Below are positions 6,485 to 8,876 of a stretch of 15,629 nt of DNA, piece after piece. The first letter of the stretch is position 1. Each line of letters begins with the position of its first letter. This DNA is from Veillonellaceae bacterium (GTDB lineage: Bacteria > Bacillota_C > Negativicutes > UBA1444): the NCBI GenBank assembly GCA_012798135.1, contig JAAZNU010000038.1:1-15629 (forward strand). Direction: 5' to 3'. Both the position numbers and the translations under genes were made by a program. The notes under the pieces are model-generated. The model was not told where the DNA came from. It saw only the letters and a list, made by a program, of their open reading frames with translations, and did no database searches.

Positions 6485-8374
6485 CTACTTTCGATTTCTC
6501 TCCAGCCCATATTTCTCCAAATATCGGTATAACGTAACCCGGCTAACCTCCAGGTTTGACGCCAGCCGGCTGATGTTGCCGCCGCAGGCTTTCCAGGCGT
6601 CAACAAATGCACTCCGGTCCCGTTTCCAGGCTTTGCCCCAACCACTGCCGCCCGGCAGCACCAAATCCGTCGGTTGGATCACAGCGCCGTGCGCATGGAA
6701 AAACCCCTGTTCCAGCACTCCCTGCAGTTGTTTGACGTTGCCGGGCCAGTCATGGTTCATCAGCAGATTTACGGCCATCGGCGACAGTTGCTTGCGTTCA
6801 CCGGGATGCTGCAGAGACAATTCCTTCAGAATGTCCTCGGCGATCAGCGGAATATCCGTCTGGCGGTGCCGCAGGGAAGGCGTCCGAATCACTGCCTGGG
6901 CGATCAGATAATACAGGTCCTCGGAAAACAATTCTTTCGCAACCAGTCGTTTCGGGTCGACATCCGCCGCGGCGATAACCCGGACCTCTTTTTCCCGCTT
7001 CAAAGCCGCCGCCAGTTCGTCGCCCAACGCAACCGGCATTTTGTCGATTTCATCGATAAACAGGGTGCCGCCCCGGGCCAATTCGATCTTTCCCGGCACA
7101 TTGGAATCGCCGGCGGTCGCCACCCGGCCGAACAACTCCGACGGCAGCAAGTCGGCGGGAGTATCGCCGCAACGCACGGTAATCAAAGGCCCTGCGGCAT
7201 GAGGGCTGGCCTGGTGAATGCCATGGGCGAGACGTTGCTTGCCGGTGCCCGGTTCGCCCAAAATCAACAAATGATCGAGGTGGCGGGCGCAACGGGCCGC
7301 CTTGTCCTTCATGGCCGAAAATCTCGGTGCTTCGCCCACCAGGCTGGACAGGCTGTACCGCGCCTTGTATTGGGACGCATATGCCAACAACGTCTTCATG
7401 TCTTCGATCGGCGTGGAAATCACCGTCGCGCTGGCAACAAACTCGTCCGTCTGGTCCGGCCAGACACTGGCAATATCCTCATAGGTTTTCCCGCCAATAA
7501 TCCAGACCAGTTCCCGGTTGAAGGAAGGAACGCCCAAAAACGCCCGCGGGATTTGCGTATGCCCGTAATTCAGGACCGTTTCGTTCAAATTCAGGCGATG
7601 CTCCATGCTGTGGCTGCGCTTCATACCCCTAATCAACCGCTCGTTGCCCAGTCGATTCGCATACAGGACTTCGCCGGCGGGGTCGACCTGATATATCGCC
7701 ATCGGCACTTTATCCAGCAACGACTCCCGCCCGGTCAGCTGTTCTTCCAGTGTCAGCGTCTGTTCCAACAGATGTTTCACCGACAGTAGCAATGCCATCA
7801 ACCCGTCCATGGATAACCGCTGTTTTTCGGTTCCGTCCATGACTACCATGGTGACCAGATAGCGAATTTTATCGTCGACAATGATCGGCGCTGTGGCCGC
7901 ATCGGAATCATGGCAATCCTCGATCCATATCTCCGGGCCGAACAAAACGAACGGCGTCCGATGCGCCGCTGCAATACCGACGCTCGATGCGCCGATATCC
8001 CGCTCCGCCAGACGCGCCCCTTCCAGTTCGCCGGGAGTCCGCTGATAAAAAGACATGGTATAGCTTTTCAGCACATAGCTCTCGTCATCCAGCAGCAAAA
8101 TGCTGATATTGTTCCGGCTGAGAAACTCCCGGATGCTGTCATAAAACGCGTCCAACTGCCGGATCACTGCATGGGCCGCCGCGAGCCGCTCTCCCCGTTC
8201 GGCTTCGGTCAGACGAACAAAGGGACCGAAATTTTTGGCCGGCACTCCCAGACTGCGACTTTTTTGCCAGGCCTCGCCCACCCACGGATGAACATTGGGG
8301 TCGAGGATTCCCTGCGCCATGAATTTCTGGTAATACGTTCGCAATTTTTCCCGGTTTCGTTGTTCGCGGATCAT
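6485..8374 (-). CDS. GAF-PAS-AAA-Fis regulator, AcoR/DhaR-like, with degenerate AAA+ module
   Basis: Transcription regulator of 629 residues with the layout of a sigma-54 enhancer-binding protein. An AcoR-like lead (VHPWVGEAWQKSRSLGV, 28-44) precedes a GAF domain (about 70-205), a PAS domain (about 215-325), an AAA+ domain (about 343-575) and a Fis-type helix-turn-helix (GGNISRLASNLEVSRVTLYR, 598-617). Walker A (GEPGTGKQ, 373-380) and Walker B (GGTLFIDEI, 435-443) remain. The GAFTGA loop expected after ELFG (413-416) is absent, both arginine-finger positions are replaced (FSEDLYYL, 483-490), sensor I reads AAAD (468-471) and sensor II reads PGNVKQ (544-549). It is therefore probably not a working sigma-54 activator and may act on sigma-70-type promoters, as TyrR does; this is inference. 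The ATG at 8374 has AGGGGGTG close upstream. It may be the first gene of the string down to polX. Its ligand and target are unknown. Confidence 0.9.
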   Translation of the reverse strand: MIREQRNREKLRTYYQKFMAQGILDPNVHPWVGEAWQKSRSLGVPAKNFGPFVRLTEAERGERLAAAHAVIRQLDAFYDSIREFLSRNNISILLLDDESYVLKSYTMSFYQRTPGELEGARLAERDIGASSVGIAAAHRTPFVLFGPEIWIEDCHDSDAATAPIIVDDKIRYLVTMVVMDGTEKQRLSMDGLMALLLSVKHLLEQTLTLEEQLTGRESLLDKVPMAIYQVDPAGEVLYANRLGNERLIRGMKRSHSMEHRLNLNETVLNYGHTQIPRAFLGVPSFNRELVWIIGGKTYEDIASVWPDQTDEFVASATVISTPIEDMKTLLAYASQYKARYSLSSLVGEAPRFSAMKDKAARCARHLDHLLILGEPGTGKQRLAHGIHQASPHAAGPLITVRCGDTPADLLPSELFGRVATAGDSNVPGKIELARGGTLFIDEIDKMPVALGDELAAALKREKEVRVIAAADVDPKRLVAKELFSEDLYYLIAQAVIRTPSLRHRQTDIPLIAEDILKELSLQHPGERKQLSPMAVNLLMNHDWPGNVKQLQGVLEQGFFHAHGAVIQPTDLVLPGGSGWGKAWKRDRSAFVDAWKACGGNISRLASNLEVSRVTLYRYLEKYGLERNRK

Positions 8375-8495
8375 TGCGCACCCCCTGCTAGTTGTATTTT
8401 TTATTTATAAGTTTAAAAACAACCTCAACATGTAGAAGGAATATTTATTATCCTGTAGAATTAAATAACTGCGAATTAATTCTCGGAGGTGCTCC
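8375..8495. promoter_or_regulatory. AT-rich divergent intergenic region with TGTAGAA direct repeats
   Basis: The 121 bases between the minus-strand regulator and the plus-strand small gene are far richer in A/T than their surroundings and must hold both promoters. TGTAGAA occurs twice in the same direction, at 8431-8437 and 8454-8460, with a period of 23 bases (about two helical turns). TATTAT (8446-8451) between them is a possible -10 box for the + gene, with a weak TCAACA at 8425-8430. TATAAA on the minus strand (8404-8409) may serve the regulator. No start site can be fixed from sequence alone. Confidence 0.45.
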
Positions 8496-8774
8496 ATGTT
8501 CATTGACGGGGTAAAAGTCATTGCCGATCCGACTTTCAGCGCGGAGGAGATTCAATATTTCGTTGCCGAAGAAAAGCGCCTGTGGCAAAACAAAAATAAA
8601 CAGCTGGGGCAATTGGCGCTGGAACTTGACGGCGAGGAAGTCATCCTGAAGGGAACCGAAAAATCGCCGATTCGTCGCATCCGCCGGATTACCGGCTACC
8701 TGAGTTCTATTGACAACTTTAACGACGCCAAAATTGCCGAATGCCGGGCCCGCGTTACCCACGGCGCTTCATGA
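8496..8774 (+). CDS. Small protein with NrdD-like glycyl-radical tail motif
   Basis: A 92-residue protein, the only + strand gene here. The start is firm: GGAGGTG lies 5 bases before the ATG, and a strong terminator follows the gene. Residues 58-89 contain RRIRRITGYLSSIDNFNDAK followed by AECRARVTH. This resembles, from memory, the extreme C-terminus of class III anaerobic ribonucleotide reductase (NrdD), where RxTGY/RxCGY carries the glycyl radical; the equivalent glycine would be G67. The rest of NrdD is absent, including the ten-stranded barrel and the four-cysteine zinc site that normally precedes the tail; C83 is the only cysteine. The N-terminal half (1-55) is charged and I do not recognise it. 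It could be a replaceable radical tail, an accessory protein, or an NrdD-derived protein with a new role. The similarity is moderately sure; the function is open. Confidence 0.8.
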   Translation: MFIDGVKVIADPTFSAEEIQYFVAEEKRLWQNKNKQLGQLALELDGEEVILKGTEKSPIRRIRRITGYLSSIDNFNDAKIAECRARVTHGAS

Positions 8775-8843: not shown

Positions 8844-8870
8844 CGGCGGCTGAAGCCGCCGTTTTTTTTT
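8844..8870 (+). terminator. Intrinsic terminator of the small NrdD-tail-like gene
   Basis: Perfect 7-bp GC stem CGGCGGC / GCCGCCG (8844-8850 and 8855-8861) with a TGAA loop, followed by nine T (8862-8870). It lies about 70 bases after the stop at 8774. Read on the minus strand the stem has no T-run after it, so it ends only the + transcript and not the converging HD-GYP transcript. Confidence 0.93.
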
Positions 8871-8876
8871 GCCGCT

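What the first reader, a model, noticed from the sequence alone, without database searches (positions are those of the whole stretch)
8496..8774. Stand-alone NrdD-like glycyl-radical tail: possible spare part for anaerobic ribonucleotide reductase
The 92-residue protein ends in a stretch (58-89) resembling the glycyl-radical C-terminus of class III ribonucleotide reductase, with RITGY placing G67 where the radical glycine would be. The catalytic barrel and zinc-cysteine site are missing. In E. coli, YfiD/GrcA is a free glycyl-radical domain that replaces the oxygen-cleaved tail of pyruvate formate-lyase. By analogy this protein could restore oxygen-damaged NrdD, act as a decoy for the NrdG activase, or have moved to another function. 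The gene has a strong ribosome binding site, its own AT-rich upstream region and a clean terminator, so it does not look like a decaying fragment. The NrdD similarity is from memory; the repair role is inference.
Basis: partly seen in the sequence, partly recalled or inferred. Interest (0 to 1): 0.72.

Follow-up and report, generated by a model that had tools for sequence, protein, structure and literature searches.

The report
Detachable radical loop of anaerobic ribonucleotide reductase
A small bacterial protein is a free-standing copy of the oxygen-sensitive glycine-radical end of the anaerobic enzyme that makes DNA building blocks, and many related bacteria seem to depend on such a separate piece because their enzyme has lost its own.

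Summary
The 92-aa ORF at 8496-8774 matches the last 33 positions of PF13597 just above the curated cut-off. G67 is invariant in 44 of 44 aligned homologues, the gene is under strong purifying selection, and a predicted beta-alpha-beta-beta domain precedes the tail.

In 61 of 200 sampled genomes of the class, at least one NrdD stops just after its zinc finger and lacks the glycyl-radical loop; all 61 also encode a stand-alone tail. In 50 of them no intact NrdD was seen. Tail type matched core type in 28 of 28 rows, the finger-loop motif is kept in 58 of 58 core sequences, and in at least 26 genomes the tail gene lies just upstream of nrdG. Window orthologues sit beside tail-less type-A NrdD in four genomes. 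In the window's nearest relatives NrdD keeps its own tail, so here the protein is most likely an exchangeable spare.

Stand-alone tails also occur on phage-like contigs. A trans-acting glycyl-radical loop for class III RNR is the best reading. Oxygen repair is unproven, and one genome has the tail but no detected NrdD. Ten literature searches found no report of it.

The parts
8496..8774 (+). CDS of the stand-alone NrdD-type glycyl-radical tail protein (92 aa)
8496..8660 (+). N-terminal domain, residues 1-55: predicted beta-alpha-beta-beta, block mean pLDDT 87-94; proposed docking module (inference)
   Evidence: alignment
8661..8771 (+). Glycyl-radical loop and C-terminal tail, residues 56-92, homologous to PF13597 530-562
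8694..8696 (+). Codon GGC of the predicted radical glycine G67 in RITGYL; invariant in 44 of 44 homologues
8485..8489 (+). Shine-Dalgarno-like GGAGG, 6 nt upstream of the ATG
8844..8871 (+). Terminator-like hairpin with T tract between convergent genes
6485..8374 (-). Divergent AAA+/HTH_8 regulator of the sigma-54 activator family without a GAFTGA motif; divergent neighbour of the tail gene in 14 of 47 genomes whose tail loci were searched

Best explanation
The protein is a trans-acting glycyl-radical loop for class III ribonucleotide reductase. Its C-terminal 35 residues dock into the barrel of NrdD where the built-in tail normally sits. NrdG then makes a radical on G67, and that radical starts nucleotide reduction through the finger-loop cysteine of NrdD. 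The N-terminal beta-alpha-beta-beta domain probably supplies the extra affinity that the covalent link gives in ordinary NrdD. In many relatives a stand-alone tail is the only glycine loop that was found, so there it would be an obligate separate subunit. In the window's organism, whose nearest sequenced relatives keep a tail on NrdD, it is most likely an exchangeable spare for enzyme cut by oxygen at its own glycine. Shown by computation: homology, conservation, presence in every sampled genome with tail-less NrdD, matching sequence types, linkage to nrdG. Inferred: docking, radical formation on G67, repair.
For: PF13597 tail match above cut-off; G67 invariant in 44 of 44; dN/dS 0.062. Tail-less NrdD (profile match ends at 530-540 of 562): 50 genomes with only such NrdD and 11 with both kinds, of 200; all 61 carry a stand-alone tail, against 45 of 137 genomes with only intact NrdD. 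Core C-termini end just past the zinc finger, some with remnants (RRVRKIIE in G069, FERIHRITE in G266). Finger-loop MGCR kept in 58 of 58 core sequences. Tail type equals core type in 28 of 28 rows from 27 genomes for which both sequences were in hand. Gene order core-tail-nrdG in G057 and G105; in 15 genomes the tail gene is next to nrdG with the core elsewhere. Window orthologues with the same divergent regulator occur with tail-less type-A NrdD in G042, G064, G010 and G027; in G010 and G027 it is the only glycine loop found. 16 of 19 genomes with only tail-less NrdD that were tested show no match to the class II RNR profile, which also rings in E. coli and B. subtilis.
Against: No biochemistry. 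The window's own genome is not held, so its NrdD is unseen. G095 keeps the tail and its regulator but shows no NrdD and only a weak NrdG match, and has two class II RNRs; either the genome is incomplete, or the loss is recent, or this tail has another use. G042 has a second stand-alone tail and G064 a second tail-like match in a 55-aa frame, so the window orthologue is not the only candidate loop there. The window's tail is not linked to nrdDG. The profile margin is small. The glycine loop is predicted with only moderate confidence (block means 65-74). Genomes are related and of unstated completeness. No complex could be modelled here.
Confidence: 0.8

Rival explanations
1. In the window's organism the protein is not a spare but the obligate radical subunit, because its own NrdD also lacks the tail.
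For: In G042, G064, G010 and G027, whose tail genes sit beside the same regulator, the type-A NrdD is tail-less.
Against: The nearest relative (G001, tail 93% identical) and G002 keep a tail on their type-A NrdD, as do seven more genomes with this regulator. The window's genome is not held.
Confidence: 0.2
2. A decoy or brake: the free tail competes with NrdD for NrdG and tunes activation rather than joining catalysis.
For: Tail genes sit next to nrdG in at least 26 genomes; extra copies occur in 45 of 137 genomes with only intact NrdD; the window copy has a conserved regulator next to it.
Against: Does not explain why each of the 61 sampled genomes with a tail-less NrdD carries one, nor why tail type follows NrdD type.
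Confidence: 0.08
3. The tail serves another glycyl-radical or radical-SAM system and the NrdD resemblance is ancestral.
For: G095 has the tail and its regulator but no NrdD was found.
Against: 106 of 107 carriers have NrdD; the tail positions shared with NrdD are invariant; the type match with NrdD is 28 of 28 rows.
Confidence: 0.06
4. A neutral leftover or chance similarity.
For: Only 34 residues match the profile, with a margin of 1.2 bits.
Against: 140 homologues at E<=1e-3; dN/dS 0.062; invariant glycine.
Confidence: 0.01

Closest known systems
Autonomous glycyl radical cofactor GrcA (YfiD of E. coli, Y06I of phage T4)
   Same: Small free protein made of an N-terminal part plus a glycyl-radical C-terminus; both bacterial and phage versions exist. 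In the proposed model YfiD recognises enzyme that still has the residues just before the cut; natural tail-less NrdDs also end just before the glycine (PMC8683613, passages and section 7 part 2).
   Different: The partner is NrdD, not pyruvate formate-lyase; no PFL-type match; the N-domain is predicted folded, while the abstract of PMC8683613 says the YfiD N-terminus is disordered; here a stand-alone tail is often the only glycine loop found rather than a repair part.
Class III anaerobic ribonucleotide reductase NrdD (PF13597, TIGR02487)
   Same: The glycyl-radical loop and C-terminal tail.
   Different: No barrel, no finger loop, no zinc site, no ATP cone; separate gene.
Split RNR genes in phages and split class II RNR (PMC3653736, passages; the Pseudomonas case only as a title in a reference list)
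   Same: One RNR divided over two genes.
   Different: The passages describe introns, inteins, homing endonuclease insertions or adjacent ORFs; where in the protein each cut falls was not checked. Here the cut falls between zinc finger and radical glycine, recurs on the NrdD tree, and the small piece often has its own domain and gene location.

Membership tests
NrdD (class III RNR) | Glycyl-radical loop and tail at the C-terminus | tested here: met
   PF13597 530-562, 27.4 bits over cut-off 26.2; G67 invariant in 44 of 44
NrdD (class III RNR) | Alpha/beta barrel with finger-loop cysteine | tested here: not met
   92 aa; only profile positions 530-562 match
NrdD (class III RNR) | Four-cysteine zinc site before the loop | tested here: not met
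   Translation has a single cysteine; the zinc site stays on the core proteins
GrcA / YfiD | Free small protein ending in a glycyl-radical domain | tested here: met
   Stand-alone ORF with RITGYL tail
GrcA / YfiD | Sequence homology to the pyruvate formate-lyase glycyl-radical domain | tested here: not met
   hmmscan up to E 1 lists only PF13597
GrcA / YfiD | Takes a glycyl radical from the activase and restores oxygen-cut enzyme | not testable with these tools
   Needs EPR and activity assays
Split intein (trans-spliced tail) | Intein splicing motifs on the tail protein | tested here: not met
   No intein model among the three NCBIfam hits of P0001 up to E 1

The most novel reading that the evidence does not exclude
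Class III ribonucleotide reductase exists naturally as a two-polypeptide enzyme whose radical-bearing glycine sits on a small exchangeable subunit. That subunit began as a spare part, which let NrdD lose its own tail several times, and phages carry their own versions to keep or take over the host's anaerobic dNTP supply.
Probability: 0.6. Interest if true: 0.9.

Novelty: new variant of a known kind. Interest (0 to 1): 0.8.

Why it matters
The authors of the YfiD study state that only two spare parts, both for pyruvate formate-lyase, were validated and that other glycyl-radical enzymes might have them (PMC8683613, passages and section 7 part 2). This family gives NrdD a candidate, with a natural test at hand: enzymes that have lost the tail. 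It would mean that the stored radical of an essential DNA-precursor enzyme can sit on a separate chain, and that NrdDs without a C-terminal glycine should not be written off as broken. In 16 of 19 genomes with only tail-less NrdD that were tested, no class II or class I-like RNR match was seen, so the pair may be essential. Copies on phage-like contigs suggest a compact way to sustain host dNTP synthesis.

Tried and rejected
Own-genome search: no genome is held for the window, so co-occurrence was tested in relatives.

Trans-splicing by a split intein: rejected, no intein model on the tail protein; the intein found in the NrdD of G002 (and the matching gap in G001) lies near profile position 150, not at the tail.

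Frameshift or assembly error as the cause of tail-less NrdD: rejected, since similar end points recur across genomes, a full N-domain usually precedes the separate tail, and the two genes are often on different contigs.

Literature: ten searches, seen as listings, showed no report of a stand-alone NrdD tail or of NrdD split at the glycine loop. Passages only were read of PMC12288474, PMC9669993, PMC4390871, PMC11226230, PMC12208373, PMC3653736, PMC4493059 and PMC3019208; of PMC8683613, passages plus section 7 part 2. The library lacks most subscription journals and preprints, so this is not proof of absence in print.

Rows dropped or chosen: one search aligned 44 of the 120 homologues listed, picked for spread. 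The 46 locus-derived rows of the 62-row alignment were cut out with a pattern that requires the R..GY motif, so their invariant glycine is partly built in; one search is the unbiased count. For the NrdD tree, a 'quick' LG+G4 tree with several long-branch warnings, ten loci were dropped by name (L104, L190, L194, L193, L189, L199, L206, L231, L005, L227) and rows under 45% identity to the references as well; 134 rows were used. One search printed CORE for L104 (NrdD followed by a glutaredoxin-like stretch), L190 (gene broken across contigs) and L194 (ends in MNGYL, so has a tail); these labels were not used. In the tally, G087's divergent NrdD-like frame that ends at profile 525 was not counted as a core.

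Full report
WHAT IS THERE. The ORF at 8496-8774 encodes 92 residues. Residues 56-89 match the last 33 positions of PF13597 (NRDD) at 27.4 bits, over the curated cut-off of 26.2; the close relative in G001 scores 25.2, just under it. NCBIfam NrdD models hit the same stretch. No other Pfam family was reported up to E = 1. The barrel, finger loop and zinc site of NrdD are absent. One search returned 140 homologues; most of the 120 listed are 89-93 residues long. In an alignment of 44 of them G67 is invariant, with E26 K35 S57 P58 R61 R63 R64 I65 T66 Y68 L69 S70 F75 N76 K79 E82 R86 H89. In a wider alignment of 62 rows, 46 of which were cut from loci with a pattern that requires R..GY, 13 positions stay invariant, G67 among them. 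Against the 93% identical relative in L001, dN/dS is 0.062, and 0.026 in the tail half.

STRUCTURE. AlphaFold2 with the 62-row alignment gives mean pLDDT 83.5: strand, helix, two strands over residues 2-55 at high confidence, then the loop with G67 and a C-terminal helix at lower confidence. A distant relative from G057 shows the same order of elements at lower confidence (74.0). The N-domain has no specific match among solved structures.

TAIL-LESS NrdD. The key evidence came from relatives. In 200 genomes of the class of G002 (the relative with locus L002, titled a Sporomusaceae MAG), PF13597 found NrdD in all but two: G103 has no match and G095 only the stand-alone tail. Reading match ends genome by genome and stand-alone tails by the A2 profile at E <= 1e-14, the tally is: 50 genomes whose only NrdD matches stop at profile position 530-540, 11 with such a core plus an intact NrdD, 137 with only intact NrdD, and 2 with none. 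Stand-alone tails occur in 50 of 50, 11 of 11, 45 of 137, and 1 of 2 (G095). The 45 is a lower bound, since short tails without the N-domain could be missed. Fisher's test on the first three groups gives p = 2.5e-22, but genomes are related, so this overstates the evidence. Genomes whose NrdD is in pieces (G016, G026, G143) were counted as intact because a piece reaches position 562; in G138 the intact copy and in G162 the core are each split over contigs.

The cores end shortly after the second CxxC of the zinc finger, some with remnants of the lost tail such as RRVRKIIE (G069) or FERIHRITE (G266). All 58 core sequences checked keep the MGCR finger-loop motif. On a quick maximum-likelihood tree of 134 NrdDs, tail state needs at least 13 changes; branch warnings apply, and counts alone cannot tell gain from loss, but the remnants point to repeated loss.

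MATCHING PARTS. NrdDs with RITGYLS-type tails (type A, about 675 aa) and RITGYLVGT-type tails (type B, about 740-830 aa) coexist, beside a third type with RRTCGY tails. In the 27 genomes for which both a core and a stand-alone tail sequence were in hand, the tail is of the core's type in 28 of 28 rows, 18 B and 10 A, including genomes whose intact NrdD is of another type (G030, G041, G053, G064). Some A assignments rest on small margins (G042: 0.62 against 0.61). In G057 and G105 the order is core, tail, nrdG, with the tail and nrdG ORFs overlapping by 14 bases. In 26 genomes the tail gene is 10-451 bp upstream of nrdG on the same strand, and in 15 of these the core gene is on another contig or, in G170, far away; this is a lower bound because lists are cut. 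NrdG matched in 200 of 200 genomes, above cut-off in 195. Of 19 genomes with only tail-less NrdD tested with the class II profile NrdJ_Z, which also rings in the E. coli and B. subtilis controls, 16 had no match. Completeness of these genomes is not stated.

THE WINDOW COPY. Upstream and divergent lies a regulator with a sigma-54 interaction domain and HTH_8 but no GAFTGA motif. It is the divergent neighbour of the tail gene in 14 of 47 genomes whose tail loci were searched, G010 by a short match at a contig end. Among these 14, G042, G064, G010 and G027 have a tail-less type-A NrdD, G001, G002, G054, G004, G024, G135, G087, G079 and G091 have an intact one, and G095 has none. In G010 and G027 the window orthologue is the only glycine loop found; G042 has a second stand-alone tail (L042) and G064 a second tail-like match in a 55-aa frame. 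So the same gene at the same place accompanies a tail-less type-A NrdD in four genomes and an intact one in nine. G001 and G002 are nearest to the window, which is why I favour a spare part there; the window's genome itself is not held.

BEYOND THE CLASS. A phylum-wide search (398 genomes, 192 with a match, NrdD's own tails included) led to 26 genomes chosen mostly because they carry a stand-alone tail; 12 of these have tail-less NrdD, one in pieces (G583) and one beside a second, divergent NrdD (G507). Eight (G391, G415, G439, G462, G507, G526, G547, G566) have short tails next to the core without the beta-alpha-beta-beta domain, which looks like at least one separate fission. This set was chosen for having tails and is not an independent test.

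PHAGES. In IMG/VR, 371 of 527 candidate stretches encode a relative; the best 80 loci were kept. In 79 the frame is under 260 aa; one of these (L281) is a piece of an NrdD, and one locus (L305) is a longer NrdD. 77 show no match to three NrdD queries and one NrdG query in the fetched flanks of up to 4 kb. Neighbours from 19 loci (118 of 150 listed ORFs) include endolysin, terminase, portal, integrase and DNA polymerase families, so phage or prophage origin is likely for at least some. The second tail of G042 (L042) is found on viral contig locus L250 (60 residues compared). INPHARED gave two short unannotated records with a match; plasmids gave only partial matches of 29-32 residues. Whole phage contigs were not searched for nrdD.

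READING. The family works as the glycyl-radical loop of class III RNR on a separate chain. It works like YfiD/GrcA but is not a member by sequence. [quoted passage not shown] natural tail-less NrdDs end in just that stretch, and most tails keep an N-domain. Oxygen cuts class III RNR at its glycyl radical (PMC3019208, passage). Radical formation on G67, docking and repair are inferences. The main contrary case is G095.

Noticed in passing
L231 1032-2477 (G002); also G001: The type-A NrdD of G002 carries a 482-residue in-frame insert near PF13597 position 150 that matches the intein C-terminal model TIGR01443 above cut-off; G001 shows the same break in its match.
   Followed up: partly
window 6485-8374 (-): Divergent sigma-54-activator-family regulator lacks the GAFTGA motif, as do its versions in L001 and L002; it may act without sigma-54.
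   Followed up: partly
L234-L313: Stand-alone NrdD-type tails are common on phage-like contigs, some near endolysin genes.
   Followed up: partly
L027 (G095): Tail gene with its regulator in a genome with no NrdD match, two class II RNRs and only a weak NrdG match.
   Followed up: partly
G064 C19:96111-96206: A second NrdD-tail match (profile 533-562) in a 55-aa frame, about 7 kb from the intact type-B nrdD of G064.
   Followed up: no
L104 (G099): NrdD whose frame continues into a glutaredoxin-like stretch with CPNC after the tail.
   Followed up: no
L230 (G087 C1:1263042-1264622): A divergent NrdD-like 570-aa frame matching profile 1-525 only, E 2.2e-112, of unknown role.
   Followed up: no
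L174, L179-L180, L183-L185, L187-L188: Short tails without the beta-alpha-beta-beta domain directly after tail-less cores outside the class.
   Followed up: partly
L013, L020: A small ORF that looks from memory like a carboxymuconolactone decarboxylase lies just upstream of two tail paralogues; possible stress link, not scanned.
   Followed up: no
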